Source: Bryum argenteum (Eukaryota > Streptophyta > Bryopsida > Bryales > Bryaceae). Taken from it: a stretch of 64,000 nt of DNA. Positions 1 through 29,520 of this stretch are shown in pieces; the stretch's first letter is position 1; the number at the start of each line of letters is the position of its first letter. The notes beneath the pieces were generated by a model. That model was not told the DNA's origin. It was given only the letters and a program-made list of their open reading frames with translations, and ran no database searches. The translations under genes were made by a program, and so were the position numbers. The stretch is taken from positions 15,702,648-15,766,647 of the forward strand of contig CM073329.1 in the NCBI GenBank assembly GCA_037043015.1. Reading direction: 5' to 3'.

Positions 1-2670
1 ACACGCCTCTAGCTTGTCAAATTGACCTGGTATCACTGGCCAGTTGTATTCGATGGAGTCGATGGTGGCCTCCCTTGGCCATTTGTTCCTCCTCGCGTTC
101 ATCACGCAGAAGTGTGCGTTGGTAGAAACTGCTGGTGGAGGATCTATAGTCCAATCGACCAGGGCTCCAAATCGCCCCATTTCTTTGTATACCAAGTCCC
201 AGGCGCGCTTTTCTACTCTCGAGAGCCCATAATCCTCCAGCAACCATTCAATGGCCTTCCAGGATGGCACTGGTTGCTCCGATGGTTTGTCAAATAGACT
301 CTCGTAATTTCCAAGGTATCGCTTCTTCAACTCAGAGCCTGTCACCATGGATCGTAGACTCACCCACTTCGGTGGCCTGAATGTTGCTGGCGGTGTTGTC
401 AATTTGACCTGGCTCGGCAGGGGTGCTATGTCCAATCGACCCTCTCCGAGTCCCTTTAGCGACGCCTGAATCTCACTATAAATGGTGGCCATAGCATACA
501 CATATGTCCCAGCCGAAAATTCTCCACGCAGTGCTACCGCTTCTCGTTCCAGTACCAGAGCTATTTTCCTCTGGATCTCTACTCGATCGTTGAGTTGACC
601 CTTCATCATACAGAGTATGGCCTGCCATCCCTCAAAACCTCCCATGCCATGGATCTGTGTGAGCCTTTGCAGCTCATCTGTGCTATCTCCAACTCGCACC
701 AATCGGACCTCCTCAGGTGTCTTGTCGAGTCGACGCTTAACTTGTTGCTGCTCCTCGAGTGCTAAGTAATATGCCAGCACTCTTGCTCCCAAGTGCCCAA
801 TTGGTATAAGGAACTGCCTCGGCTCCGTCAGCTCCAAGTCTTGTCTTGCCAGCATCTCACACAACAAATTCTGTTGGTTCGAAAATCGACTTGCCCTATT
901 CCAGATTCGAAGGAAAGCCTCTCCGTCTATTTGACTTCGGATCTGCAGATTGTACATAGACAAGAGGATTGAATGTTGGAGCTCGTAAGCTCGGAACAGA
1001 GAGAAGCTCGGTGGTGCTCTAGCTTCTTGCTCCCACATTGCCGTGACGAGCTGGTCCAATCGACTCATTAGAATAGTCACCTCGGCACTTAGGTGGTTAT
1101 TCTCCTCCCTTAGCTTGTCCGCTTCGCCTTCCATGTCTCCACCTCCTCGTTCGCTTTGTGTTGCTCTGTCATCCGCCATGGTGGAAATATCATGTGGCAG
1201 GGTGGTTTGAGTCGACTCGACCACATAATTGAGTTGTTTCTTTAAACTGATACATTCCTGTTTCGAGCAAGCTAAATCCCGGGCCAAGATGACGTTATCA
1301 TCCTCCTTCTCCTTCAGCTGGACCTGTAAAAGGCCAACAACTGGTCCACTTGACGGCCCTGACTCATCGGTCATGGTGGACTGCTCCCTTCTTGTTCCAT
1401 TGTCGACTTGACCTTGTTTCTCGGCCGTTTCTGCGGCTGCTTGGATGAGTTGATCATTCAATGATGTCAATTCGACCTTCTCCACCAGAGCCTGTTCAAG
1501 TTCCGCTTTTCTCCTGGCTGCATTTCCTTTCCATACATTGACATCGCCCTCCAACTTCTTGATTTGTAGCTTCATCTGGATCTCTCTTCCCAATACTTCT
1601 TGGAGCTCTTGCATCACCCTTCTTTCTTTGGCTCTGGCCTGCTTCAGCTCGCATACCAGTTGTTGCTTGGTCAAATTGTCCGGAATCTGAAGTTGAACTG
1701 GTGCGGCAGACAGGGATAAGGCTAATGCATTGGCGAATCCTCGAGCAGTTTGCGGTTCTCTCATTACTTCCTCGGAGACGTCCTCTTCTTGCTCTTCTGC
1801 ATCTCGCACCCGCTTTCCTCGTCTAATAGACTCGGTCTGACTCAGAGGTGTAACAGTTGTTGGTGCGGCCACTTGACTTCGTCTAATTGACCCAGATGGA
1901 GCGCTTGTCGTCGCGGTGGTACTCGCTGGTACTGGTGTTGCTGGGTCTACTCGACCGCTCCTCCTTTCAGCGTCAATCTGCCTCACAGTTGGAGTCGGAC
2001 TCATACATAGTTGGCACACCTCCGAGATATATACTCCACTGAACAGGATCAAAGGATTTCTCGTCCGCTTCCGATTCAACTCGACCCTTGTCTGGTTCCA
2101 GATGATGCGACCCCAGTTCAGCTCCTTGCCTTCCCACGCCATGATGGCCGCTGACAAACCATGCTCTTCAATCACCTCTACTCCGTTCAGCGCCATGAGA
2201 ATCTTCTGGTTCATGTAGTGGAGCCACTCCTTCCAGAAACCTTTTGCTTTTGAGATCACATAATTCGCACCACCTTTCGGATTCTTCCCGAAAATTTCAG
2301 CTACCTTCTTGTTAGTCAACTTGTTGACTCCTCCCAATGTGAGTCCTGTCCCTTGCAGCCCGAGCTTCTCAGCAACTACCTCTGGTGTGAATCGAACATT
2401 TTTCCCTCGCACCGTGACTTCTTCTGAAGCTCCATAGTACGAATTTTTGATGAATTCGCTCACCAGCTGCGGATCCATCTCTGGAAGTGTCTCATGAAGA
2501 AAGTTCCATAGCCCTGCATCGATCAGATTCTCCTTGTTCGATTCGATGTAGACCCAGCCTTCTGGTGAAAAGGAGAAGGTCGGTGCCTCCTCAATTTTTA
2601 ATACAGGTGCGATGCTGCCCTGTCCTCCCGCTTCTCCTGTTTGTAGTCGATTAGACACAGGAGCAAACAT
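1..2670 (-). CDS. ORF3 of the OTA element: long coiled-coil protein, open to the left edge (at least 890 aa)
   Basis: One frame stays open from an ATG at 2670 to base 1 with no stop, so the true protein is longer than the 890 codons seen. Residues about 1-230 are a compact region with LNWGRIIW and MNQKILMALNG motifs; these resemble the domain annotated in plants as a putative plant transposon protein domain (inference from pattern only). Residues about 230-290 are Ser/Thr/Pro-rich. A long Glu/Lys/Gln-rich coiled coil runs from about 330 to 530, followed by a mostly helical C-terminal region. It lies downstream of pol, the position of the extra ORF in Athila/Tat elements. It has no recognisable envelope signal peptide or membrane anchor. 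The DNA of this frame is itself dense in the GTCNANTNGAC palindrome, in at least two codon phases. Function unknown; a DNA-binding or anti-silencing role is only a hypothesis. Confidence 0.75.
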   Translation of the reverse strand, partial: MFAPVSNRLQTGEAGGQGSIAPVLKIEEAPTFSFSPEGWVYIESNKENLIDAGLWNFLHETLPEMDPQLVSEFIKNSYYGASEEVTVRGKNVRFTPEVVAEKLGLQGTGLTLGGVNKLTNKKVAEIFGKNPKGGANYVISKAKGFWKEWLHYMNQKILMALNGVEVIEEHGLSAAIMAWEGKELNWGRIIWNQTRVELNRKRTRNPLILFSGVYISEVCQLCMSPTPTVRQIDAERRSGRVDPATPVPASTTATTSAPSGSIRRSQVAAPTTVTPLSQTESIRRGKRVRDAEEQEEDVSEEVMREPQTARGFANALALSLSAAPVQLQIPDNLTKQQLVCELKQARAKERRVMQELQEVLGREIQMKLQIKKLEGDVNVWKGNAARRKAELEQALVEKVELTSLNDQLIQAAAETAEKQGQVDNGTRREQSTMTDESGPSSGPVVGLLQVQLKEKEDDNVILARDLACSKQECISLKKQLNYVVESTQTTLPHDISTMADDRATQSERGGGDMEGEADKLREENNHLSAEVTILMSRLDQLVTAMWEQEARAPPSFSLFRAYELQHSILLSMYNLQIRSQIDGEAFLRIWNRASRFSNQQNLLCEMLARQDLELTEPRQFLIPIGHLGARVLAYYLALEEQQQVKRRLDKTPEEVRLVRVGDSTDELQRLTQIHGMGGFEGWQAILCMMKGQLNDRVEIQRKIALVLEREAVALRGEFSAGTYVYAMATIYSEIQASLKGLGEGRLDIAPLPSQVKLTTPPATFRPPKWVSLRSMVTGSELKKRYLGNYESLFDKPSEQPVPSWKAIEWLLEDYGLSRVEKRAWDLVYKEMGRFGALVDWTIDPPPAVSTNAHFCVMNARRNKWPREATIDSIEYNWPVIPGQFDKLEAC

Positions 2671-4582
2671 TTTGTTAGGTGGTTTGTCTACTTGACAAGT
2701 GCTCATCCTTATCCGTGTCAATTTGACCTCCTTAATTCGATTTTATATCTTCTGTCAATTTGACACGATTTTTAGCATCTTTATCCATTTCGATTGCCTA
2801 TTAGATTCGTTTTCGAACATTCCTCATTCAACAGTATGTGAATTAGACTCATACAATACACACATTGCTTGTCAACTGGACTTCAGCCTAATTGGATCAT
2901 GTCGTTCGACATCCTACACATGGTCAATTGGTCTTTTACAACAGCTCATTCATTCAAACTTTCATTGTCAATTAGACTTTGAGATTGGTGTATTCTTTCC
3001 TTACTTACCTGTGGTATTATTTTCCTGTTTTACAGCTACTCTCGACATTGTGAAAATTCAGAAGTGTTACTTGAAAATTTGAAAGAAAAACAACTGCCAA
3101 TCCATTGCACAAAAGTTAGTTAGGCATGTATATTACTCAATTACTTAGGTCAAATGGACTCCTCCTTGTCAATTCCACGTTCATGCATTTTATTTGTCAA
3201 TTTGACACTCATCAGCATACAACAGCCTCGGTTCTTTGATTTCTTTTGTCCATTTGACCTCTTATTTTACAATAATCAACACAACATGTAGACCTTTTCT
3301 GTCCATTTGACACCAATTCATGATCTCACATGCATTATCCTCTAATTAGGTCCATTTGACAGTTTCTTCTTACTTACACCTTCGACCTTCCTATTACAGC
3401 ACAGTCCATTTGACGTTCACACCGAACACAATTTTTTCACCGTATAACACACTGTTTATTTGACCTAATTCCTTCGCTCTTCGTTCTTTACAATTTCATT
3501 CAGAGTCTACTCGACTTCCAAAACTTTGCTTCTCGCATCAAGACATCAGCTTTCTTTCTGGAAAACTTACCTTCTATGTCACGCCACTCACATGCAGCGA
3601 GCAAACCTTGTTCTCCTCGCCCTGGTCGACTTGACTCCCTGCTCCAGTCGACTCGACCTCCTGTTCGTTTTGCGAGTACTCCCACTCAGCGGCAGCGCGT
3701 GTCCACTTGACACTTAGCAGGCCGCGCGAGTCAACACAAACAACAACACGAAACACACAAAGGAGCAAAAACACGAAGGAGTGGAAGGAGCGGAAGACTC
3801 AAACTGAATGCGCAGTGAGGGCGGGAGACTCAAGAAGGAGGTAGTTTTATCAAGGTCATGAAATCATGATCATTTGGTGGCGGCGCATGACGCCGTAACT
3901 GCCAGTCTATTCGACCCCACTAACCCCAGTTAGTCAATTTGACCGGCCACCAGTATACTTATCATGATTACTTTGTTGATTTGACCATTTGTATTTTTAT
4001 TATTATTTTTAATCATTTGTGTTAAGTCTATTTGACAATATCCTTTTGTTTAATGATTAAGTCTTTGTAGACAAAATCTAGAGTTTTTATTTTCTAACTT
4101 ACTTTGTTAGTCAAGGTTTAATATTCTAATATTTTAGAATGTTTGAAATATTCACAAAATTTAGATAATTAAGACTTAAAAGTAGTGGGTATCCCTAATC
4201 CTTTTCTTAGTTAGGACTATTTGGTGTCTAAAATTGGAAGATCTTTCTTGTTTTTTACGTTTCCTTGGTTTATTACTTATTTATTGCCCACTCTCTTTAT
4301 AAGTCTAAACTCTAAATTTGTCCTTATAAGAGATTATGCGACTTCTTCTAGTTAATCCCATAATTACATCTATTTTCCTTGGGGTTAAAACTTTCTTTGT
4401 ACTATAAAGTTCATCATGGCTTGACTTCTATTTACTTCAAATCACTTCAGAAACACTTTATAATTACTTTTATAAAGAAGGTTCTAACATAATGATTCCA
4501 CTTGCTCTAACTTTTCTTGCTATCCGATTGACTTTGCTATAATTAATGCATCATTGATTACTTTACTTATACGTCTATTTGA
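16..4582. repeat. Dispersed 11-bp palindrome GTCNANTNGAC, about 33 copies
   Basis: Exact matches occur for example at 16-26, 398-408, 2717-2727, 2754-2764, 3196-3206, 3248-3258 and 3301-3311, with many more between. The eight fixed bases (GTC.A.T.GAC) are symmetric; positions 4, 6 and 8 vary freely. By eye there are about 33 copies in 4.6 kb, where chance predicts well under one. The same motif recurs seven times in the 5' LTR (12,094-12,935). It is nearly missing from the 7 kb of gag-pol and leader between. Each half-site contains the W-box core TTGAC in many copies. Confidence 0.9.
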
Positions 4583-4670
4583 CTAAAATTTAAAGAGTTT
4601 AATTTAAGATATTTTAATGTTTGGGGTTAAGTAACTTAGATTTTTCATAATTTTAAATTTGTTATTTATT
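2671..4670 (-). other. Noncoding spacer between pol and ORF3 of the OTA element
   Basis: About 2 kb with no convincing reading frame on either strand. The right half (about 4.0-4.67 kb) is very AT-rich; the left half is packed with the GTCNANTNGAC palindrome, at some places every 50 bp. It probably includes the transcription or splicing signals for ORF3, but I cannot point to one. Confidence 0.6.
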
Positions 4671-4684
4671 AGCCCCCCTCTTTA
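4671..4684 (-). other. Polypurine-like tract just after pol
   Basis: On the minus strand the bases following the pol coding region read AAAGAGGGGGGCT. This has the look of a polypurine tract. The sequence beyond it does not match the start of the 5' LTR, so it is more likely an internal tract than the boundary of the 3' LTR. Confidence 0.35.
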
Positions 4685-4699
4685 AAATATAACTTGTCC

Positions 4700-7600
4700 T
4701 CAAGTTATATATAGTTTTAGACGATGACCATTATAACGCGTTTGATGAACGTTTCCCGCAAAGTCCTGAATTTCAACTGAACCATTTGGATAGCTTTTTA
4801 AGACTCTATATGGGCCAAACCATCTCATTTTAAATTTTCCCGGAAATTTTTGGAATCTACTATCATAAAGTAAAACCAAATCATTTTCTTTTAATTCCTT
4901 TGTCCCAAGTTTACTATCATAGTACGATTTTCTATGTTTTTGTATGGCTAGCATATTTAAATATGCTTGAGCCCTTGATTCATCCAATTTTTCTAACATT
5001 ATATATCTTTGCTTTAAAGAATCCTGGTCTCCTAGTCTTTCTTCTATGGCAATTCTTAAGGACGGCAATTCTAATTCAATAGGGAGTATGGCTTCTTGAC
5101 CATAAACCAAATTGAACGGTGTGTCCTTAAGAGTAACTTTATAGGCAGTCCTATAAGCCCAAAGTGTGTCTAATACACGACTATCCCAGTCCGTAGTTGA
5201 CCCTTGTACAGTTTTTGTGATAATCTTACACAAAATGCCGTTAGTTTTCTCGGTTTGTCCATTAGTCTGGGGGTGATAAGGTGTAGATGGTCTATGTTTT
5301 ATAAGATATTTTGTAGTCAACTCTTCTATGGTTTTATTCATGAAATGTGTACCTCTATCACTCACCAATTCCTTTGGACAACCAAAGCGAGTTATTATAT
5401 TTTCATACAAGAATTTGGCTACGGTTTCTGCATCATCCTTTTTAGTGGGGATGGCCTCTGCCCATTTTGTGACATATTCCGTAGCTACAAGAATATATCG
5501 TTTTTGGCCATAACGGCTAGGGGGTTTAATTGGGCCTACAAAGTCTATACCCCACTTCTCAAAAGGTACTTGGGCTAGAATTGGGTTTAAGGGCATGGCT
5601 TTGGTTGGTGTTGGTTTGCCTACTCTTTGACACGCATCACATTTTCGAGCATGAATTGCGGCATCTTAGAACAAGGTGGGCCACCAATACCCGGCCCTTA
5701 AGACTTTTTGTGCAGTTACCATTCCTGCGAAATGGCCCCCACAAGCGTCATCATGACACGCTTTTAAGACTAATGGTACCTCACTAGGATTCACACATCT
5801 TCTTAAGATTCCGTCTTTGCCTTGATTATACAGAACCTTAGCAATTATTGTATAAGGTTGAGCTTTATAAGCTAAATTTTGCTTTTGCTTTTCGTTATAG
5901 TCTAAAGGAAAAGTGTTAGTGGTCAAATAATGAATAACATCGGCATATTCCAATGGAATAATGTCAACGTTAAAAATATGCGCATCGGGAAAGCTATCAT
6001 CTATAGGCTCGGGATTTACTTCTTTACTTATTCTAGACAAAAAATCCGCATTACCATGTTGTCTTCCCGGTCTAACATTAATTGTAAAATCAAATTCTTG
6101 TAATAGCAATACCCAACGTGCTATTCTCCCACTAAGTTGAGGTTTATTAATCATATACTTAAGAGCATCATGATCAACATAAAAATTAAATTTATATCCC
6201 AATAAATAATGTCTATACTTTTGAACCGAGTAAACCATCCCTAAGCCCTCTCGTTCAGTCACAGAATAATTCCTTTCAGCCGCACTCAATTGCCTGCTAG
6301 CAAAATAAATTGGTCTATCACGACCCTTATCATCTTTTTGACTTAGCACACTACCAATGGCTACATTTGAGGCATCCACATAGACTTCAAATATTTTATT
6401 CCAATCAGGGGGAATTAGTACGGGGGCTGTAGTAAGCCTTTTCTTAAGTTTATTAAAGGCCTTAGTGCACTCCTCCGTCCAGACTCCCGGCATTTCTGTT
6501 TGTTTGGTTAAATGAGTCAACGGGTGTGCGATTTGAGCAAAGAAATAAATATGGCGGCGGTAGTAGCCCGTACCTCCCAAAAATGACTTAACATCGGTAA
6601 TATTTTTTGGAATTTCAATTGCTAATATTGCCTTAACCTTATACGGGTCTCTGACAATACCATCTTTAGACACTATATGTCCTACAAGACGTCCATAAGG
6701 TACTATAAATTCGGATTTAGCCGCGTTTATAGAAATGCCATATTCTTGGCATTGCTCAAAACATTTTCTTAAACACTCCCCATGTTCTTCCTTTGTGCTA
6801 AAAACACAAAAATCATCCAGAAATATTTCAATAAATTTTCGCATATATTTTTGAAATGCTATAGTCATAACCCGTTGGAATGTAGCAGGGGCATTGCACA
6901 AACCAAATGGCATGACGTTATAGGCAAATGTGCCCCAATCAGTTGTAAAAGTTGTTAAAGGTCTATTTTCTGGGGCAATTTGAACCTGATTATACCCAGA
7001 AAATCCATCTAAAAAAGAGTAACATTCATGCCCAGCTACTGCATCTAATATTGCATCTGTAAAAGGTAAGGGAAAATAATCTTTCCGAGTTACACTGTTT
7101 AACTTTCTAAAATCCTGACATATCCTTAATTTCCCATTCTTTTTTGGTACAACGACGATGGGAGAAACCCATTCGCTATATGGTACAGAATAAATAAACC
7201 CACATTCTAATAATTTGTCAATTTCTTCCTTAACTAGTAATGAATATTTGGGGTTCATCCTGTATTGTTTTTGACGTACAGGTTTAGTGTCAGGTTCTAG
7301 GATTATGCGGTGTTGACAAACACGTGCAGGGATCCCTTTCAAGTCCTTATATGTCCATGCAAATGCAGTTTGATACTTTTTGAAAAATTTAAACCATTGA
7401 TCCCTTTCTTTTGGGCTTAAGTTTTCATAAATCCTTATGGTTTTTGAATTTTCGGGTGTTCCAAGTTCCATGTCAATACAAATACTTTTGGGTGATTTTA
7501 AATTTTTTAACACACTATGAGACATATTGTCTAATAATTCCTCTGAATCGGTTAAGTAAGGGGGTTCCTCCTCAGATTCCTCCTCAACCTTAACCGTATA

Positions 7601-10600
7601 AACCGGAGAATTCTGCCATGCTAATATAGCTGCATCTGAATCCTCCCCGTTTAAAGGGTTGTAATATTCTCCCGGTCTTAAGGTTTTAACTATGGTTTCC
7701 TCTTTACCCACTTGATTTGTGGTTTCATCTTCTTCTATGCTACCCGTAGTGTACTCAGAGTTTTCCTCTTGAGTTTCCCCGTGGTATTTGGATGGGTACA
7801 TAGGTATTGTAATTTTGTCTTTTCCCCTGCCTAAGGTTATTGTGCCTTTACCCCAATCATCCCTAGCTTTTGCTAAATACAACCAAGGTCGGCCCAAAAG
7901 TACCGGATAGGCGGCGATAGGTTCACTAATTTTAAAGACTATATAGTCAATTCTATAGTTCAACCCTCCTATCATTGTAAGAATTTGTTTAAGCACTCCC
8001 AAGGGTTTAACCCTTCGTTGGTCGGCCATTCTTAAAATTATAGGAGTGGTAGTCATGGTTTGTAAGCCTAACTCCTCCATAGTATCTAGATTCATTAAAT
8101 TTACACTAGACCCACCGTCAATTTGAGTATTTTCAATCAAAGTCCCATCTATAAAAATGTCTATGGTTGGTGCACCAGGATCTATAGAAATATCATGTAC
8201 CTCGACTATTTTTGGACGTTTCTTAACCAACGAGGAGCTAAGTTCGCTCCTACATTGGGGGGAAACGGCCAATAATTGCCTTAAGGATATTTGAGGTTGA
8301 ATACTATCCATATTTGTAAGGATGTTATAAGGGTTCATTCCTACCATAAGATTCATGATTCTATTATGTTTTCTCTTTTTTGTGGTAGGGAGAATTTCTC
8401 TTATAGTTTTCTTAATTATTTTCCTAGGTGGTTTGTAGAATGATGGTTGTGTTAAGGGAGCCATTTGCTCTTGATTTAACACTTTCAATGGATCTTCCTT
8501 AGGCAAATTTTCATTTATATTAGACTTGTCTAAATTGACATCTCGAGGTGTTTCTATAATAGGTGGTACATGTGTATTGTTAAGTTCATCTACGGTTTTG
8601 GGTGTAGTATTTGGTACCAAGGGTTCATTAATGATTTGATTGCCTTTTAATTCCGTCCATTCTTTAGGGGTAGATAATTGTCTCTTAACCGGTTTTCTAT
8701 AATCGGTTATCGAACTACTTTCTTGATTGGATTCAAGATTAATTCCTCTCTCCCGTGCTTTGGACCTAGTGACTACTTGACAATCCTTATCATCAAAGAA
8801 ATTGGTTGTCCTTAAAACACAATTGACCTCTTGAATTTTTTCAGGGTTTGAGAATTGCACTTGTTTAACCGGTTCCGGTGCTCGACAATCCTCAGCCAAA
8901 TGGCCAGGTTTCTTACATCGTCTACAAAACAAATCGTATCCTGTTTCTTTCTTAGGTGCAGGACAATCTCTTGCAAAATGTCCTAGTTGCCCACAATTGT
9001 AACACTCCAAAGTTCTACCTCTATTGTTCATCCCTGGCTTCCGAGGGTTAATGTTGGATGATGGTCCATTCCAACTGGTAGAGGCGTTATTCCACCTTGT
9101 CCCACCGTCTCCCGGTTTATAAGGGAGTCCGTTGTTAGGACGGGTGAACGGACGTTTTGAGGTAACATTGTAAGGAGGTTTGATATTATTGGTTTGGGGG
9201 TTTCTATTGTTATTATTTTGCATCTCACTTATTGCGGCTACAGCCTTTCCCAAATTCCAACACCTCTCAGTTGAGTGGTTACCACCACATAATTGACATT
9301 TAATGTCAAAACTAATATTTCCTACGGTAGGTGAGGGACATTCATGGGCTAAATGCCCATGTCCTTTACAGTTAGTACACCACATATTAGTCCTTTGATT
9401 TGAAGACTTAGGACGTTTCTCTCTAGCTTGGGTGAACCTAATTGTAAGATCATTTAATTTCCTTTCTAATTTTGAAATAGGATCATTCATTATCGGATCC
9501 ATTGTTGGAGGTTTTATCGCCAAGGGTTTGGGATTATATATTGGAGGTGGAGCCTCTAATCTTAAGAGTTCCTCACCCCCCCTAGAATATATATCCTTTC
9601 CTTGTGGATCAACTCCATATAAATGACTTGGGTGATGTCTAGTTGGTGGGTACAAGGATGGGTCCTCAATTTGGACATAATCATGATTGACCCTAGCTTC
9701 CTCCCAAGTTTTAGCTAATGTATAAGCAGTTGCAACATCTCCAGGGTTCTGCTCCCTTAAATAAATTCGTAACGTTTCTGGGTATACACCTCCAATAAAG
9801 GTGCTTACCAAGAAATCATCTGGCATATGATGCCCTTGCCATCTCCTTAAGAGTGTGTTCATCCGCGTATAGTAAGAATCTATTCCCTCATTCATTCCCA
9901 TTTTAATGTTTCTTATCCTATCAATTAGACCAGGTACAAACGATCGAGGTCTAAATCTTCTTAGGAAATTATCACGTAATTCATCCCATGTGGCTGGGGC
10001 AGCAGGTAATTGGGAGTACCAATCACCGGCTATGTCAATTAGAGTACTCGGGAATGTAGTTAAATATAGGGGTTCTGGTAGTTGATTTGCCCTAGCTACT
10101 ATTAAAAATCTGTCTACATGTCTATCTGGATCTGTCCCAATTATTCCATGAAACAATGGATATGGAGCCACATTTAAGACTCTTTGCTGAGCCATTGTTA
10201 CTTGGCCTACCAATGGGTTTGTAAATAATGGGAGTGGATTATTTAAGCTACTTCCAGAACTTGAACTTGAAGATGACGTTCTTGAAGTATTGTTTCCACT
10301 CCTTAAAGAGGAATCAGTACTTAAAGTAGGAGAATGTCCTTGTTCGATTCCTCCAAAGCTATCTAAAACTGATTGAATAGTTAATATTGGGGTTTCAATA
10401 TCAACATCATCAGAGTCATGTAAGGATATTTGTCCACTTGAAATTTCTGTTTTAGGAGAACTCGTTTGTCCTATGTCATAAATTTCATTTAAATCTTTTG
10501 GTCTAGAAAACAAATATTCTGTCAAGTTTCCTTCTTGAGATCTTTCCCAATTTGGAGAAGCTTGACCGGATATTGGGTCTTCTAATCCTAATAAATTAGG

Positions 10601-10810
10601 TGTTGGACTATCTATAGACTCCAAGGAAACATTTACTTTTTGAGGTTTCTTATTAACACTACGTTGTTTGGTTTTGCTCAATTGCAATTGAGATTTTTTG
10701 TCCAATAATTCAATATTAGCTAATATCTTCTTAAGCTCTCTTGTAAAAGCACGATTGGTTCTCTCTTGAGTCTGTTGTTTAATCAATAACCCCTTTCCCT
10801 TGTCCGACAT
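4700..10810 (-). CDS. gag-pol region of the OTA element (fossil copy)
   Basis: Parts in transcription order: a capsid-type retrotransposon gag domain (about 9.7-10.2 kb); four CCHC-like zinc knuckles such as [14 protein letters not shown] (about 8.9-9.4 kb); an aspartic protease with [10 protein letters not shown] (about 8.1 kb); reverse transcriptase with the active-site variant FLDDF (about 6.8-7.3 kb); RNase H (about 6.0-6.4 kb); an HHCC zinc-binding motif and the integrase core with a C-terminal GPY-type module WFGPYRV (about 4.7-5.8 kb). There is no chromodomain. The copy is close to whole, with about one break. Unlike the flanking LTR, spacer and ORF3, this region is almost free of the GTCNANTNGAC palindrome, so the motif is not a general base-composition effect of the element. 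Confidence 0.9.
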
Positions 10811-10824
10811 TTATTAGTCATACC

Positions 10825-11571
10825 TTATCGCCTAAGGTAGAAAGACTCCAATTCTAATGTCTCGGGAATGTCTGGGAATGATTTTGGATAATTGTATTCC
10901 TTAATCAAGGTTTCTACAAAGAAATTATTTCTATTAATTCCCCTAAGTTCCTCTATATGTTGAACTAATAACTGTATTAATTCCTTACAATTTTTTGTGG
11001 TATTTACATATACTACCAATAATTTTTTCAAATAGATTAAAGGTTGGACTAATTCATTTGGAATATCCATTTATGGACATAATAATCCGTAATGAATAGC
11101 CAATGGTTTCCCTCTTTCGCTATTCAGAAAATCCGGTATTAAAACTTTACTTTTGAGATTTGGTACGCCGTATTTAAATACGTAGCGTCGGGATCTGTTT
11201 GGTGATGCTAAGCTGCCATTTCATGCACCGCATCCCTTTGGAATAAGACTTTGGGTAAGGTGTTTTATTCTACCATATTGGGCAAAAAAAAATTGAAGCT
11301 TTAAGGGTAGCAATAATTCTCCTTTGTCTATTATAAAAATATTATAATTTCTTCCTTCTTCCCAAATTTTACTCAAAATTATTCCCTTAACTTCTAAGGG
11401 TAATTTATCAAATAAAATTTGAAAGTCTTTGGATAGTTTTGGTAGGTTTCCTGTTAATTGAAATCCTTGACCAAAATACGTTCCTTTGTAAGCTCTAAAT
11501 AATGCGGAAAATAAATAAGGGCCTGTGTAAAATTGAGTAACCCTTTCTCTATTTACTTCCCAAGGAAACAT
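10825..11571 (-). other. Leader region with two small reading frames before gag
   Basis: Between the primer-binding site and gag are two short frames, 11,571-11,221 (116 aa) and 11,070-10,825 (81 aa). The first contains a compact hydrophobic and aromatic stretch; the second has a leucine-rich helix. Neither matches a family I know. They could be upstream ORFs, small accessory products or relics. They share the orientation of gag-pol. Confidence 0.35.
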
Positions 11572-11871
11572 GCTTCATTCATGAGTCCTTGAATTTTTTT
11601 CTAAACTTTTTAGAGTTCTTGGTTGAATTATCTTAAGTGTTATTTAATTAAATTGGTCTCTCTTAAGATAGTTCAAAATTTAAAGAAAAAACCATTGTTC
11701 TATCTTCACTCTTTCTAGGGCTTTTTAAGTTTTAATGTGTCTTAAAAACCCACAAGAATTTTGGCGCGATAGACTACAAATTCTTTGGTTTTTCTTTCTA
11801 TTCTAATTCTTGAGTTTAAGAAAAGATAAGAACTATTTTTCTTAACATCTTAGTCGCCGTTAGCCGAACCT

Positions 11872-11889
11872 TCCCCGGCAGCGGCGCCA
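11872..11889 (-). other. Primer-binding site of the OTA element
   Basis: The minus strand reads TGGCGCCGCTGCCGGGGA directly inside the LTR end. It is complementary to a tRNA 3' end finishing in GGCGCCA, the class of primer (often reported as tRNA-Asp) used by Athila/Tat elements. It fixes the inner boundary of the 5' LTR at 11,893. Confidence 0.85.
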
Positions 11890-11892
11890 AAA

Positions 11893-13483
11893 TGTAGAAG
11901 GGTTTTTTATCTAAGACAATTATATCTCAAATAAAATCCTAGTGGGGGATCTTTGATGGAAGGTTTCATGCGTCTAACGTTTTAATCCAACTAATGTCAT
12001 ATGTTAATAAATAGTAATGTTGGGATCTTAAACTCAACCCAAGATACTCTAGATCACTTTCCACAACCACTCAATATTTAAGTGAACCCATTGGTCAATT
12101 GGACATCATGTTATAGGCTTTGGTTTGGTCAAATTGACAATGGTCACGGGTGCATTTAGTATCACGGGTGGTCAAATGGACAGAGGGTTATAGTCAAATT
12201 GACATTCGGTAATCTGAAGGTCTTAAGTCAAATTGACAACCTGCATTTAAAAGCTTTAAGTCCATTTGACTATCATCTCACTCTTCCAATTCAATGAGTC
12301 TTAAGGTTAGAGGACTTATCAAGATCTGCTTTAGTCCTTCCCTATTTGTTCCTCAAATCGCTTCTATCTTCATCATTCCATGTCCTATCTGCAAAGCATT
12401 CTTAAGATAGTATTTCTTATTAGTAGGGGTCAAATATATATAAGACAATAATATGAGGTTGATCAATCCTTACACCATTAATCTTTAAGAAAATTAGGGA
12501 CCCTCTTAAGAATATCTCTTATCGCATGTGCTTATTTCACTATTTGAAGCTAGCTAGACTTCAATAATGCTTAATGGTGTTGGCCAACCTTATCTTCTAC
12601 TCCTTAGAAGATCTATTACAACGGCAATGCTTCCAAGCATTCCTTTTTCTTAAGATTAGACTCTTCTCTAATCTTAAGAATAACAATTATATAGTGAAGG
12701 ATTTTGATTCTCCTTTCACTAAGTGTACACTTTAATAATAGCGACCATTAGACTCCTTACACTTGAACTTTCATGTCCAAGTGGTCTCTCCAGCCTAATC
12801 GACTTATTCTATATCAACCATTTCTCTTCATTCTATGTTCTATTGTCTATTCAAATCAACTTCCACATATGAATGTCATTACACATTCAATACCGAGTTA
12901 TTCATACAATTGACATTTTATGCATGTCAATTAGACAATTCTACATACTCACACAAGCATTCCATCAAGTTGACAAGTATATTAATAATTCAATAACAAT
13001 TAGAAATGCTTTACACAATTAAGTGTTTGAAATCGCCAATTGAAGCCTCTTGCTTCAATTGCTCTTCTTTGTTGGATTCCGCTTCCGGCACTATTGAAGC
13101 CTCTTGCTTCAATGGCTCTTTGTTGGAGTCCGCTTCCGGCACTCGCCTTCTTATTACTCCCGGAGTAATAAGATTTACACTTACACTTTAAACAACTATG
13201 AACAATCTTAAAGCTTGAAATGTAAAGTATATTAATGAATTAAAATTGTTCTAAGTGGAATACACGAAGAGAAGGGTGTAGACAAGAATGTCTTGTCTTC
13301 CCACACCTTTTATCTCTCTTAAGACGAAAAGGTACATATGTAGACCTTTTGAGATCCACCTTTCTATTTCTAAAACCATTTTGTCCTATTATTTCCTATC
13401 TTGTCTATTTGTCTTATCTAATTATAAACCTTTTTACATTCTATTGGACATTTGAGCCTAATTAAAGCTCTTTTCTCATCACA
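11893..13483 (-). repeat. 5' LTR of the OTA element (about 1.59 kb)
   Basis: The LTR begins with TGT next to the primer-binding site and probably ends with ACA at 13,483, where the sequence changes abruptly to GC-rich coding-like DNA. The right boundary is inferred, because the partner LTR is outside the window. It holds seven exact GTCNANTNGAC palindromes, mostly in 12,094-12,275. A direct duplication of about 60 bp lies at 13,037-13,143. No coding potential is seen. Confidence 0.65.
13037..13143. repeat. Tandem duplication (about 55-60 bp, two copies) inside the LTR
   Basis: Two adjacent units share the phrases GAAGCCTCTTGCTTCAAT and CCGCTTCCGGCACT, with small differences. It is a length-variable region of the LTR. 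Confidence 0.7.
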
Positions 13484-13512
13484 TAAACCCCTCGGTGCAG
13501 GTCTCAGCAGCT

Positions 13513-14990
13513 ATGGCTCGCGGTGCTCCCCGGGAACGCAAGCCGTTGTACATCCCGCGGCAGATTGCAGAATGGAAGAAGTACCCTGGACGTGGAGTGG
13601 CTCACCGACGCGGGGCTGTTACGTTACGCAAACCATCTCCGCAATAACATCGACCTCGGGCGCTGCAGGGCATTCATCGCGTCGATGCAGGAGCGGCAGC
13701 AAGAGGATCCCTGCAACACAGAGGTGGCCGGGGTCGTGGAGGGGGTCCTCGTGCGATACTCCCCGAGGTACTTACACCAGTTCTTCGGCTGGGACGGCAC
13801 GGGGGTCACGAGTTGGTCGCCGAAGACGAGCAACCTTCCGCAGCCAGACACCACGGTGTACACCCATGGATACCCAGTGCGAGGGGGCGGCAAGTTCGAT
13901 GTTTACGACATCACTCGTAACAACCCGAACATGCCCGACCCATGGTTTGGCAGAATCCGCGGCATACTCAGCCAAGTGTTTTTCGGAATGACTGCAATGC
14001 AGTGCATCCGGATCAAATTGCGTTGTGTGTCATGGTGGGCCGTGGCGAGAAGATCAATTGGGGGAAGCTCGTGGAAGGAACGCGGTCAACTAGATCCAAG
14101 GGCATGTCCAAAGTGACGATTATGAGAGCCCCATCGCCCCATTTCTGATACAATTCATTGGCCATTTCCTGGATTACCACCGACTAAACCATCACCCGTG
14201 GGCCATGGGTACATTCTTCGACGTGCAGCGCGAAGTGGCAGAGGCGGCGCAACCTAACGTCACGCCAACCCACCGGGTGAAACGACCACGCATCGAGGAA
14301 GACGGTGCAACAGAAGGAGGCCTCATGGAGGTCGCTAGCACGTCCACAACCACGCAGCTCGGCCCCCGCGCCAAGGAGTTCGAGGCCCAGAAACGCACCG
14401 TGGAGACATGTATGGAGGAAATGCTTAATTTCCTCCACACCACGGAGCAACAGCAGCAGACGGCCACGGCCAAGTACAAGGAATGGGAGACTCGGCACAA
14501 ACGCCATACTGCACACCTGGTGCAGACAACCCAGGCCGCGGCTCGCAAATCCATGGAAGACTACAAGCTAGAGGTCCAGCTCCACACCACCCAACTCCAA
14601 GGGCAGGTAACCTCCCTGCAGAACCAGCTCAACGCGAGAGACTTGGAACTGCAGGCAGCCACGGAGAGGTCCCGAACTTTCGAGGACCAATGCACCCGGG
14701 ACAGGGAAAGAATTGAGCGGATGGACCGCCAAAATGCCGAGCTCGTCGCTAAATGCAAGGCCTTGACCGAGGAGTTGGCCCTCAAATCCACGGCCCCGTC
14801 CTCCAACACCGTGGACATGGAGACGATGCAACGACATCGCCAGGAGGTGGAAAACGCCCGGGAGAACTTCAAAGCCAACAAGGTGGCTTGGACGAATCAC
14901 GCGGCCAGGGTGATAGCAACCACAGCATATCAAATGCTGCGGGCCACGCCACCCATGTCAGAAGAGTCTCCCACGGTGTTCTTCGACTAG
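13513..14990 (+). pseudogene. ORF3-like region of the second LTR element: compact domain plus coiled coil (fossil)
   Basis: The 5' half encodes a domain with blocks such as YSPRYLHQFFGWDGTG and GEKINWGKLVEGTRS, resembling the N-terminal domain of the neighbouring element's ORF3. The 3' half, from about 14.2 kb, encodes a long Glu/Gln/Lys/Thr-rich coiled coil (about 230 residues). It lies immediately upstream of further element-encoded frames and the 3' LTR, the usual place of an extra ORF in OTA elements. The region is broken in a few places. Confidence 0.55.
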
Positions 14991-25454: not shown

Positions 25455-26040
25455 TCAATGGGGTAGGGCCGTAGGGGCGGGTTACGGGGCGGGGGGAGGG
25501 GGCGGGCGGAAGGAAAGGAAGGGGGGGGGGGGGAAGGGGAAGGGGCGGGGGGGGGAAAGGGAAAGGAAGGGGGGGGGAAAGGGAAGGCGGCGGGGGGGGG
25601 AAAGGGGCGAGGTGGGGGAGTGGGGCGGGGGGGGGGGGGTGGGGCGGGTGAGGGGGGGCGGGTGGGGCGGGTGGGGGGTAGAGGGAGGGATAGGGGGGTA
25701 GAAGGGGGTAGAGGGAGGGATAAGGGGGTAGGGGGTAGGGGGAAGGGGGGGGTAGGGGGATGGATAGGTTATAGGGGGGTAGGGGGGGGGGATAGGGGGG
25801 GGTAGAGAGGGGAGGGATAGGGGGGTAGAGGGAGGGATAGGAGGGGGGTAGAGGGAGGGATAGGGGGGGGTAGAGGGAGGGATAGGAGGGGGGTAGAGGG
25901 AGGGATAGGGGGGGGTAGAGGGAGGGATAGGGGGGGGTAGAGGGAGGGATAATGGGGGGGTAGGGGGAGGGGGGAAAGGGGTGGAAGGGGAGGGGGAAAG
26001 GGGGTGGGAGATGGGAGGTGGGATAGGAGAGGGAGTAAGG
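25455..26040. repeat. G-rich minisatellite upstream of the transposase promoter
   Basis: Irregular GGGGTAGAGGGAGGGATA and GGGAAAGG units, almost no C. The most regular part is at 25,680-25,960, with a unit of about 25-27 bp. Glycine-rich frames across it are artefacts of composition. Confidence 0.8.
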
Positions 26041-26104
26041 ACACGTGCTCCGTTTTTTAAATGTTGTTTAAATTTTTTAAATTTTTTTAAATAAAATGTT
26101 ATTT

Positions 26105-27412
26105 GAAGAAGAATGAATTAAACATAATACCACCCACCAGTACATTCTTTAGTCCTAATATAAATTGTGAACGTAAAATCAAATATATGATTAAACCATT
26201 AGGATGATAAATTTATTTGTAATATAGTATTGGGAAGAAGAATGAAATAAACATAATACCACCCACCAGTACATTCGTTAGTCCTAATATAAATTGTGAT
26301 CGTAAAATCAAATATATGATTAAACCATTAGGATGATAAATTTATTTGTAATATAGCATTGGGAAGAAGAATGAATTAAACATAATACCACCCACTAGTA
26401 CATTCTTTAGTCCTAATATAAATTGTGAACGTAAAATCAAATATATGATTAAACCATTAGGATGATAAATTTATTTGTAATATAGTATTGGGAAGAAGAA
26501 TGAAATAAACATAATACCACCCACCAGTACATTCGTTAGTCCTAATATAAATTGTGATCGTAAAATCAAATATATGATTAAACCATTAGAATGATAAATT
26601 TATTTGTGATATAGCATTGGGAAGAAGAATGAATTAAACATAATACCACCCACCAGTACATTCTTTAGTCCTAATATAAATTGTGATCGTAAAATCAAAT
26701 ATATGATTAAACCATTAGGATGATAAATTTATTTGTGATATAGCATTGGGAAGAAGAATGAATTAAACATAATACCACCCACCAAGACATTCTTTAGTCC
26801 TAATATAAATTGTGAACGTAAAATCAAATATATGATTAAACCATTAGGATGATAAATTTATTTGTAATATAGTATTGGGAAGAAGAATGAAATAAACATA
26901 ATACCACCCACCAGTACATTCGTTAGTCCTAATATAAATTGTGATCGTAAAATCAAATATATGATTAAACCATTAGGATGATAAATTTATTTGTAATATA
27001 GCATTGGGAAGAAGAATGAATTAAACATAATACCACCCACCAGTACATTCTTTAGTCCTAATATAAATTGTGAACGTAAAATCAAATATATGATTAAACC
27101 ATTAGGATGATAAATTTATTTGTAATATAGGATTGGGAAGAAGAATGAAATAAACATAATACCACCCACCAGTACATTCGTTAGTCCTAATATAAATTGT
27201 GATCGTAAAATCAAATATATGATTAAACCATTAGGATGATAAATTTATTTGTGATATAGCATTGGGAAGAAGAATGAATTAAACATAATACCACCCACCA
27301 GTACATTCTTTAGTCCTAATATAAATTGTGATCGTAAAATCAAATATATGATTAAACCATTAGGATGATAAATTTTTTTGTAATATAGTATTGGGAAGAA
27401 GAATGAAATAAA
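26105..27412. repeat. Satellite array, 128-129 bp unit, about 10 copies, alternating variants
   Basis: The unit starts GAAGAAGAATGAAWTAAAC and ends at a TTGTRATATAG boundary. Two main variants alternate: GAATTAAAC with CATTCTTTAG, and GAAATAAAC with CATTCGTTAG. This gives a dimeric higher-order pattern, broken once near 26.6-26.8 kb. Units are about 95% alike. AT-rich, with no coding potential. Confidence 0.9.
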
Positions 27413-29520
27413 CATAATACCCCCCCTCACCCCACCCCCCCTCACCCCACCTCCCCCCTCACCCCACCCCACCCCCCCTCACCCCACCCTCCTCATCCTC
27501 ACCCCCCCTCACCCCACCCCCTCACCCCACCCCACCCCACCCCCTCATCCTCACCCCCCATCCCACCCCCTCATCCTCACCCCCTCACACTCACTCCTCA
27601 TTCCCCTTACCATCTCCGCCCCTACCCCCCTTGGTACCCGCCCCTACCCCCTTGGTACCCGCCCTACCCCCATGGTACCCGCACCTCCCCGTAATCCGCC
27701 CCTCCCCGTAACCCGCCCCTCCTCTCTCACCCACCCCACGTAGTTTTGAAAAAAATTTGCCTTCTCTCTCACCAATCTTGTGTTTTGCAAACAAGCATCA
27801 TTAATGGGATAAACAAATCCAAACATTCCCTCATTAAAGCCGGATTTGGAGTATCCCGGATATAGTGAGGAATGTTTGGATTTCCAATGATTGGATTGAC
27901 CATCATTCCACTCCTCTTCCACTTCCTCCCCTTCTCTCCTCTTCCCTCCCCACTCCTCCCTTTCTTCTTTTCTCCTCCCCTCACACCCCCCTCATCCTCA
28001 CCCGCCTCATCCTCACCCGCCTCATCCTCACCCCCTCACACCACCCCCTCACCCCACCCCACCCCCTCACCCCACCCCCCCCCTCACCCCACCCCACCCC
28101 ACCCCCTCATCCTCACCCCCTCACCCCACCCCCTCACCCCACCCCCTCACCCCACCCCACCCCCTCACCCCACCCCACCCCCTCACCCCACCCCACCCCC
28201 CTCATCCTCACCCCCCCCCCACTCACCCCACCCCACCCCCTCACCCCACCCCACCCCCACTCATCCTCACCCCACCCCCTCACCCCACCCCACCCCCTCA
28301 TCCTCACCCCACCCCCTCATCCTCACCCCTCACACTCACTCCCTCATTCCCCTTACCCTCTCCGCCCTACCCCCTTGGTACCCGCCCTACCCCCATGGTA
28401 CCCGCCCTACCCCCATGGTACCCGCCCTACCCCCATGGTACCCGCCCTACCCCCATGGTACCCGCACCTCCCCGGTAATCCGCCCCTCCCCCCGTAACCC
28501 GCCCCTCCTCTCTCACCCACCCCACGTAGTTTTCTCGAAAAAAATTTGCCTTCTCTCTCACCAATCTTGTGTTTTGCAAACAAGCATCATTAATGGGATA
28601 AACAAATCCAAACATTCCCTCATTAAAGCCGGGATTTGGAGTATCCCGGATATAGTGAGGGAATGTTTGGATTTCAATGATTGGATTGACCATCATTCCA
28701 CTCCTCGTCCACTTCCTCCCCTTCTCTCCTCTTCCCTCCCACTCCTCCCTTTCTTCTTTTCTCCTCCCCCTCACCCGCCCCTCATCCTCACCCCCCCCTC
28801 ATCCTCACCCCCCTCACACCACCCCCTCACCCCACCCCCTCACCCCACCCCCCCCCCCACCCCCTCACCCCACCCCACCCCCTCACCCCACCCCACCCCC
28901 TCATCCTCACCCCCCCACCACCCCCCCCCCCCCCCCCCCCCTCACCCCACCCCACCCTCCCTCACCCCACCCACCCCCCATCATCCTCACCCACCCCCTC
29001 ACCCCACCCCACCCCCTCATCCTCACCCCACCCCACCCTCATCATCTCCCCCCTCACACTCACTCCCCTCATTCCCCTTACCCTCTCCGCCCTACCCCCC
29101 TTGGTACCCGCCCTACCCCCATGGTACCCGCCCTACCCCCATGGTACCCGCACCTCCCCGGTAATCCGCCCCTCCCCGTAACCCGCCCCTCCTCTCTCAC
29201 CCACCCCACGTAGTTTTTTGAAAAAAATTTGCCTTCTCTCTCACCAATCTTGTGTTTTGCAAACAAGCATCATTAATGGGATAAACAAATCCAAACATTC
29301 CCTCATTAAAGCCGGGATTTGGAGTATCCCGGATATAGTGAGGGAATGTTTGGATTTCCAATGATTGGATTGACCATCATTCCACTCCTCGTCCACTTCC
29401 TCCCCTTCTCTCCTCTTCCCTCCCACTCCTCCCTTTCTTCTTTTCTCCTCCCCTCTCTACCCCCCTTACCCACCCCCCCCTAACCCTCACCCTCCTCACT
29501 TCCCCTCTTCCCCCCCTCAC
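27413..29520. repeat. C-rich block with three copies of a 240-bp unit
   Basis: CACCCC/CTCACCCCAC low-complexity DNA surrounds three copies of a 240-bp sequence (about 27,731-27,975, 28,519-28,770 and 29,201-29,450). Each copy has a strong hairpin: ATCCAAACATTCCCTCA pairs with TGAGGGAATGTTTGGAT, around a second stem CCGGGAT/ATCCCGG. A short GGTACCCGCCCTACCCCCAT tandem precedes each copy. Long Pro/His/Ser frames here are compositional, not genes. Confidence 0.8.

What the first reader, a model, noticed from the sequence alone, without database searches (positions are those of the whole stretch)
16..12935. A degenerate 11-bp palindrome, GTCNANTNGAC, saturates the LTR, ORF3 and 3' spacer of one retroelement but skips gag-pol
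By eye there are about 33 exact matches in 1-4.6 kb and seven in the LTR, against well under one expected. Fixed positions are symmetric, variable positions are free, and copies sit in at least two codon phases inside ORF3, so the DNA word, not the protein, is conserved. Gag-pol of the same element nearly lacks it. This looks like a cis-acting code recognised by a dimeric protein, perhaps one made by the element. Arabidopsis VANDAL elements show a parallel: VANC anti-silencing proteins bind short motifs repeated in their own noncoding DNA. No such arrangement is known to me for an OTA-clade LTR element.
Basis: partly seen in the sequence, partly recalled or inferred. Interest (0 to 1): 0.92.

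Follow-up and report, generated by a model that had tools for sequence, protein, structure and literature searches.

The report
Retroelements carrying lineage-specific palindromic DNA words
A group of plant-type retrotransposons carries dozens of copies of a short mirror-symmetric DNA word through its terminal repeats and its third gene, different branches of the group with different versions of the word, which suggests that each element carries a signal by which a protein, probably one it makes itself, finds its own DNA.

Summary
GTCNANTNGAC occurs 44 times in the window against 0.61 expected; 42 lie in one LTR retrotransposon (LTRs 98.4% identical). The whole element has 62: 7 per LTR, 13 in the 3' untranslated part, 18 in ORF3, 17 in the spacer, 0 in 7.2 kb of leader plus gag-pol. 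The word is selected as DNA: at 52% ORF3 identity 7 of 13 sites keep every fixed base (0.24 expected), fixed fourfold-degenerate sites are 8/8 identical against 50/170 elsewhere, and all three codon phases occur. New: related elements in the same genome carry other words in the same place: B, CNANTNG with weak outer GNC; E, GNCTATAGNC; F, CNANTNG with outer C/G. Words follow the ORF3 tree. One family, C, has ORF3 but no array found. Best reading: a dimeric element-encoded protein, probably ORF3 (Athila-ORF1-like domain, coiled coil), reads the array, perhaps as VANC does in VANDAL elements. Binding and function are not shown. My literature searches found no equivalent.

The parts
11893..13492 (-). 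5' LTR (1600 bp) with 7 exact words at 12094-12936
   Evidence: 98.4% identical over 1600 bp to L009:5400-6999; counts
11873..11889 (-). primer-binding site next to the LTR (TGGCGCCGCTGCCGGGG on the minus strand)
   Evidence: read directly; likeness to plant tRNA-Asp is recalled, not tested
10811..11892 (-). leader, 0 words
5666..10810 (-). gag-protease-RT-RNaseH frame (1714 aa), 0 words
   Evidence: Retrotrans_gag, zinc knuckles, RVT_1, RT_RNaseH, start of Integrase_H2C2; protease assigned by position only; counts
4700..5596 (-). integrase core frame (298 aa), 0 words
   Evidence: rve 7.9e-16
2743..4699 (-). spacer between pol and ORF3, 17 words
1..2742 (-). ORF3 (stop-to-stop frame of 1059 aa; its last 145 aa lie left of the window), 18 words: N domain (weak PF20167), coiled-coil-like middle, conserved C domain
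16..4583 (.). array of 35 exact GTCNANTNGAC palindromes
12094..12936 (.). 7 exact GTCNANTNGAC palindromes inside the LTR

Best explanation
The repeated palindrome is a cis-acting recognition array of a Ty3/Gypsy-type, Athila-like retrotransposon. A dimeric sequence-specific DNA-binding protein encoded by the element itself, most likely ORF3 (Athila-ORF1-like N domain, coiled-coil-like middle for dimerisation, conserved C domain), binds the words in the LTR, the 3' part and the ORF3 gene of its own family. Many weak sites together give family specificity. The most likely purpose is to keep the LTR and ORF3 region transcriptionally open against host silencing (VANC-like anti-silencing) or to activate it. 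Reader and word change together, so ORF3 lineages have their own dialects: A GTCNANTNGAC; B CNANTNG with weak outer GNC; E GNCTATAGNC; F CNANTNG with outer C/G. Shown: enrichment, layout (for A and B), selection on the DNA word, dialects, match of dialect to ORF3 clade. Inferred: that a protein binds it (about 0.95), that the element encodes it (0.75), that it is ORF3 (0.6), that the effect is anti-silencing or activation (0.45).
For: Enrichment 44 vs 0.61 and 255 vs 8 clustered pairs genome-wide. Of 22 ORF3 places read, 14 carry A, 2 carry B and 6 carry none; of 7 more places read, 3 carry E and 4 carry F. Selection on the word in dialect A: sites keeping all fixed bases 12/15, 9/11, 7/13, 6/7, 5/6, 2/4 (L017 against L021, L023, L025, L019, L032, L027), against 0.99, 0.67, 0.24, 1.90, 0.05, 0.21 expected from phase-matched positions; fixed fourfold sites 14/15, 13/15, 8/8 identical against 87/202, 68/167, 50/170 (L021, L023, L025). 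All three codon phases are used, and words also stand in untranslated DNA. Half-site asymmetric forms occur in both orientations (B 21/20 and 26/30; F 24/37, 15/23, 14/15, 12/15), as expected for double-stranded DNA rather than RNA, though F leans to one form. Dialects match ORF3 clades with the minimum of 4 changes on a 13-row tree, 0 of 200 shuffles as low. Sister lineages in one genome use different words, which a single host factor would not explain. Weak profile matches to coiled-coil structures (best E 0.0099). Young LTRs, 98.4% (A) and 99.6% over 786 bp (B), speak for recent activity.
Against: No binding, expression or methylation data. Family C (5 copies 93.6-98.3% identical plus L044 at about 83-86%) has a homologous ORF3 including N-domain pieces but no array found by my searches. 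ORF3 has no recognised DNA-binding domain: PF20167 hits are below its cut-off and in 3 of 8 members, and the only structural matches are weak coiled-coil ones; a single-sequence model of the N domain was useless (pLDDT 39). The synonymous-site test is strong only for A: B (6/8 vs 67/107; 11/19 vs 107/196) and E (2/4 vs 45/143; 2/2 vs 51/151) do not show it, and one A pair (L017-L029) kept 1 of 5 sites. Gag also diverges between lineages (40% A-B), so 'word tracks ORF3' does not single out ORF3. The CpG and CHG depletion proxy for methylation is mixed: the A LTR is strongly depleted although it carries words.
Confidence: 0.5

Rival explanations
1. The element encodes the reader, but the array serves another step: tethering or segregating cDNA, nuclear import, assembling ORF3 on extrachromosomal DNA, or choosing integration sites, rather than anti-silencing or transcription.
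For: Same sequence evidence as the best explanation; words also sit in the LTR and the 3' part, which are present in cDNA.
Against: No direct evidence; concentration in LTR, spacer and ORF3 rather than over the whole cDNA fits local control better (inference).
Confidence: 0.25
2. A host transcription factor or a family of host factors reads the words, and the elements have accumulated them as enhancers; different lineages use different members of a host factor family.
For: Short TGAC-containing palindromes resemble plant factor sites (an inverted W-box is GTCAANTTGAC; recalled). LTRs commonly carry host factor sites. Genome-wide the A word is about twice as frequent as its reversed control (3572 vs 1848); how much of that is due to the arrays I did not measure.
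Against: The positions that would complete a W-box are nearly free: GTCAANTTGAC makes up 8 of 46 sites in L017. The words fill a coding gene; the E word is not enriched genome-wide (1592 vs 1494 reversed control). Sister lineages differ in word within one genome.
Confidence: 0.15
3. The words act in RNA, as small hairpins (3-bp stem, 4-5-nt loop) used for packaging or RNA stability.
For: A DNA palindrome can also fold as an RNA hairpin; LTR and ORF3 are expected to be transcribed. F half-site forms lean to one orientation (65 to 90 in sum over four loci).
Against: Fixed bases rather than covarying pairs; the symmetric A/T inside the would-be loop is conserved; asymmetric half-sites occur in both orientations; the gag-pol part of the genomic RNA has none.
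Confidence: 0.05
4. Artefact of repeated protein sequence, tandem duplication or mutation bias.
For: ORF3 has a repetitive coiled-coil-like middle part.
Against: All three codon phases, many different peptides (VELT, GQVD, SSGP, SIRR), words in untranslated DNA, no tandem array holding the words in 1-14000, fixed-base retention at saturated divergence.
Confidence: 0.02

Closest known systems
VANDAL/VANC anti-silencing system (Arabidopsis MULE DNA transposons)
   Same: A transposon family carries many copies of a short motif in its own DNA; related families carry different motifs; a self-encoded protein (VANC21, VANC6) binds them (PMC5735166, passages read; PMC10398659, passages read).
   Different: Here it is an LTR retrotransposon, and Pfam shows only retroelement domains and a weak PF20167. 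The word is palindromic, lies also in coding DNA, is scattered without tandem repeats, and shows at least four dialects with a shared C-N-A-(N)-T-N-G core. Binding and demethylation are not shown.
Athila-type Ty3/Gypsy elements with additional ORFs (PF20167/PF03078)
   Same: Sense ORF between pol and 3' LTR; the ORF3 N domain has weak PF20167 similarity (F type 6e-11), a domain reported in a sunflower Athila extra ORF and linked there to Athila ORF1 PF03078 (PMC11728184, passages read).
   Different: In the passages I read no binding array is described for these ORFs. Lineage placement by RT tree was not tested.
Retand elements with TRP28 antisense ORFs and tandem repeats
   Different: Their ORFs are antisense with another domain (TRP28, PF04195), and the repeats are tandem arrays, not scattered palindromes inside a gene.
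Papillomavirus E2 or EBNA1-type dimer-site arrays
   Same: A dimeric element-encoded protein reading several palindromic sites in its own genome (recalled).
   Different: Few sites in a control region, not dozens through a gene and terminal repeats (recalled). No comparison was run.

Membership tests
VANDAL/VANC system | Mutator-like DNA transposon carrying a vanC gene | tested here: not met
   LTRs, gag, RT, RNase H and integrase present; no VANC or MULE domain among the Pfam matches
VANDAL/VANC system | Short motif strongly enriched in own family, rare elsewhere | tested here: met
VANDAL/VANC system | Related families carry different motifs | tested here: met
   A, B, E, F words
VANDAL/VANC system | Motifs mainly noncoding, same orientation, in tandem repeats | tested here: not met
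   Palindromic; 18 of 62 in ORF3; no tandem array with the word in 1-14000
VANDAL/VANC system | Encoded protein binds the motif | not testable with these tools
   needs EMSA, DAP-seq or ChIP
VANDAL/VANC system | Binding causes loss of DNA methylation | tested here: inconclusive
   Only a CpG/CHG depletion proxy, mixed result
Ty3/Gypsy LTR retrotransposon | LTR pair, primer site, gag-RT-RH-IN order | tested here: met
Athila lineage (OTA superclade) | No archaeal-type second RNase H (Tat has it; PMC6317226 passages) | tested here: inconclusive
   Only one RNase H region found by Pfam; no dedicated model was run
Athila lineage (OTA superclade) | RT/IN phylogeny inside Athila | not tested
   no reference set at hand
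Athila lineage (OTA superclade) | Extra sense ORF with PF20167/PF03078-type domain | tested here: inconclusive
   PF20167 3.3e-4 (window, A), 2.5e-4 (L039, B), 6e-11 (L051, F); none in the L025 (A), L050 and L055 (E), L056 (F) and L042 (C) frames; all below the curated cut-off

The most novel reading that the evidence does not exclude
A whole superfamily of LTR retrotransposons carries a lineage-specific palindromic code in coding and noncoding DNA that its own ORF3 dimer reads; the long-unexplained extra ORF of Athila-type elements is a self-recognition DNA-binding protein, and reader and word co-diverge so that sister families in one nucleus do not cross-talk.
Probability: 0.5. Interest if true: 0.93.

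Novelty: new variant of a known kind. Interest (0 to 1): 0.86.

Why it matters
If right, self-recognition by a coded DNA word evolved independently in retrotransposons, not only in VANDAL DNA transposons, and gives a function to a class of extra ORFs whose role is described as speculative (PMC6317226, passages read). The dialects (a shared core, changing outer bases, a centre that loses one base, more sites where each site carries less information) form a natural data set on how a DNA-binding protein and dozens of its sites change specificity together, including inside a protein-coding gene, and they can be tested directly by in-vitro binding.

Tried and rejected
Protein homologues of ORF3: none at E<=0.001 among the 7990 scored candidates. 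Single-sequence AlphaFold of the N domain: pLDDT 39, not used for any fold search; the second job was not used because only window sequence is allowed and the window cuts the C domain. PDB profile search: weak coiled-coil hits. A suspected third-type motif CANNNNNCTC in family C: rejected, because the copies are 93.6-98.3% identical (83-86% for L044 in the main blocks) so the positions are inherited, and EM gave no sharp motif. Idea that family C lost its word because it lost the N domain: rejected, N-domain pieces are present in L038, L041, L042, L044 and L046. Helical phasing of sites: no signal (mean cosine between -0.27 and 0.28 on 15-172 distances). CpG/CHG depletion as methylation proxy: mixed.

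The number of dialects is thus a lower bound. LTR and gag-pol were read only for A and B; for E only ORF3, its 3' side and 1.65 kb of spacer (L050); for F up to part of the integrase (L051); for C no LTR. B rests on L039, L040 and the latter's neighbour L047. L052 and L053 are about 88-90% identical in DNA to the discovery loci L050 and L051, so L055, L054 and L056 are the better replicates. L021 and L036, counted as two places, may be parts of one split copy. Row L052 was too short for the tree and was left out (13 of 14 rows).
Full report
What is there. GTCNANTNGAC occurs 44 times in the window, against a mean of 0.61 and a maximum of 3 in 100 dinucleotide shuffles. Of these, 42 belong to one retroelement on the minus strand. 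Its LTRs are window 11893-13492 and L009:5400-6999, 98.4% identical over 1600 bp, so the element spans C9:15698099-15716139. Gag, zinc knuckles, RT, RNase H and integrase are recognised by Pfam. ORF3, a 1059-codon stop-to-stop frame, lies in sense between pol and the 3' LTR. Words by part: 3' LTR 7 in 1600 bp, 3' untranslated part 13 in 2514, ORF3 18 in 3177, spacer 17 in 1957, integrase plus gag-pol 0 in 6111, leader 0 in 1082, 5' LTR 7 in 1600. Zero in gag-pol is background, not depletion.

It is the DNA word that is kept. Against a second copy at 64% protein identity (622/971), 12 of 18 ORF3 sites lie at the same aligned position, in 8 of the 12 with at least one free base changed, and fixed bases at fourfold-degenerate codon positions are identical in 14/15 cases against 88/211 outside. 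Against more distant ORF3s the contrast stays: L017-L023 13/15 vs 68/167, L017-L025 (52% protein identity) 8/8 vs 50/170, L025-L027 9/9 vs 57/150. Retention of all eight fixed bases between L017 and L021, L023, L025, L019, L032 and L027 was 12/15, 9/11, 7/13, 6/7, 5/6 and 2/4, against 0.99, 0.67, 0.24, 1.90, 0.05 and 0.21 expected from phase-matched positions outside the sites. The weakest A pair, L017-L029, kept 1 of 5 sites with fourfold identity 2/5 vs 18/72. Sites use all three codon phases. In untranslated DNA, 4 of the 7 LTR words are intact in the L010 LTR, 85% identical (1217/1435) in my alignment. No tandem array in 1-14000 holds the words.

Other copies. A search of the genome with ORF3 gave 62 matches, with 50 of 291 candidates scored. 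The 30 loci cut from it are 22 places. The 14 that I assign to type A (47% protein identity or more over long stretches) all carry the word, 6 to 46 exact sites per locus. L045 also shows 55% identity, but over 132 residues only, and belongs to family C by DNA. Two (L039, L040; 37-38%) have almost none of the A word (2 and 0) but carry CNANTNG 76 and 97 times against 14.8 and 13.6 expected. In L040's neighbour L047 the density is 8-13 per 500 bp in the spacer, 1-6 in integrase and gag-pol, 3 at 9001-9500 and 12 in the last 402 bp, inside the LTR: the same layout in another word. That element's LTRs are 99.6% identical over 786 bp. Six places (L038, L041, L042, L044, L045, L046) have neither word, and de novo searches with up to 12 positions gave nothing clearly above shuffled sequence (seven-base patterns: best scores 11.8-18.8 against 10.2-14.2 shuffled, while L039, L040 and L029 reach 46-59). 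They are one family, 93.6-98.3% identical in DNA, with L044 at 83-86%.

More dialects. Two further, more distant ORF3 elements were read without a word in mind. L050 has GNCTATAGNC 20 times and the wider GNCNATNGNC 28 times, and GNCNATAGNC counted on both strands 45 times vs 0.6 expected. L051 has CNANTNG 118 times vs 20.7, and CNANTNGG 103 vs 8.9 counted on both strands. Further members confirm them: E in L052 and L055, F in L053, L054 and L056, the last preferring CCNANTNGG. Position weights carry 14.5-16.6 bits for A and E and 6.1-8.4 bits for B and F; the low-information words are denser, 18-24 core words per kb (about 3.5 expected) against 2.7-8.0 per kb for A and E. All share C-N-A-(N)-T-N-G. 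Across the 29 places read, 23 have arrays. On the ORF3 C-domain tree (13 rows) the labels need 4 changes, the minimum, and 0 of 200 shuffles are as low, though near-copies help that; F, E and C are well supported, A only 71/70, and B (one row) is sister to C.

What reads it. Dyad symmetry, and half-site asymmetric forms occurring in both orientations (B 21/20, 26/30; F 24/37, 15/23, 14/15, 12/15), argue for double-stranded DNA and a dimer; F leans to one form. Different words in sister elements of one genome argue for readers made by the elements. ORF3 is the best candidate: N domain weakly matching PF20167 (3.3e-4, 2.5e-4, 6e-11 in one A, B and F frame), a coiled-coil-like middle (weak matches, best E 0.0099) and a conserved C domain with invariant C872, R877, R878 and W881 in 8 rows. 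In sunflower a PF20167 match was reported in an Athila extra ORF and linked to Athila ORF1, PF03078 (PMC11728184, passages). No DNA-binding fold was identified, and gag diverges too (40% A-B), so ORF3 as reader is inference.

What it is for. By analogy with VANC21 and VANC6, which bind different short motifs in their own families (PMC5735166, passages; PMC10398659, passages), the likeliest role is protection from silencing or activation of LTR and ORF3. The CpG/CHG proxy is mixed: array-bearing ORF3s have CpG o/e 0.64-0.90 against 0.54-0.57 in two family C copies, but the A LTR, which carries words, is CpG- and CHG-poor.

Literature. Searches of the open-access library (listings, with passages of six papers read) showed no report of palindromic word arrays with an extra ORF in LTR retrotransposons; most subscription papers are not held. 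PMC12844716 (passages) discusses VANC as the example of self-encoded cis motif plus trans factor and gives no LTR-element equivalent of the motif array in the passages shown.

Limits. One genome, unnamed; at least 17 listed ORF3 places not read; LTR and gag-pol read only for A and B. The synonymous-site test is strong only for A (B 6/8 vs 67/107 and 11/19 vs 107/196; F 34/36 vs 192/244, 22/31 vs 124/209, 19/24 vs 82/159; E 8/8 vs 207/242, 2/4 vs 45/143, 2/2 vs 51/151). Site retention exceeds expectation in the B, E and F pairs tested too (B 21/28 vs 8.8 and 37/64 vs 18.9; F 39/57 vs 20.4, 39/52 vs 18.5, 10/43 vs 3.0; E 5/15 vs 0.9 and 5/12 vs 0.7). Between dialects few sites are shared: A to B 0 of 8, B to C 1 of 42.

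Noticed in passing
L014 (C1:229000-238900), sites 1808-2590; also C1:2534711-2535492, 6720711, 11359190: Another repeat family carries 5 A words within 0.8 kb; none of the 4 frames scanned matched Pfam at E<=0.01. Possibly an unrelated element using the same reader, possibly chance in one repeat.
   Followed up: partly
L010 with C1:2974802-2975386 and C1:2984707: A second A copy appears split by about 50 kb: ORF3 body near 2.923 Mb, its N-terminal piece at 2.975 Mb and LTR words at 2.985 Mb, suggesting nested insertions.
   Followed up: no
window 1-13492: ORF3 is 50% GC while gag-pol is 38% and the LTR 34%; element B shows the same contrast between ORF3 and gag-pol. CWG sites are strongly depleted in the A LTRs (observed/expected 0.20-0.26).
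   Followed up: partly
window 25976-27565: Tandem array of a 129-bp unit, 11 register copies, 94-99% alike in the middle.
   Followed up: no
window 27865-29164: C-rich low-complexity stretch open in overlapping frames (His/Pro/Ser-rich), probably not a gene.
   Followed up: no
window 13039-13143: A 51-bp tandem duplication inside the LTR.
   Followed up: no
window 4700-5596 and L047, L051: Integrase is far more conserved between lineages (78.5% A-B; 65.5% A-F over residues 92-297) than ORF3 (36% A-B).
   Followed up: partly
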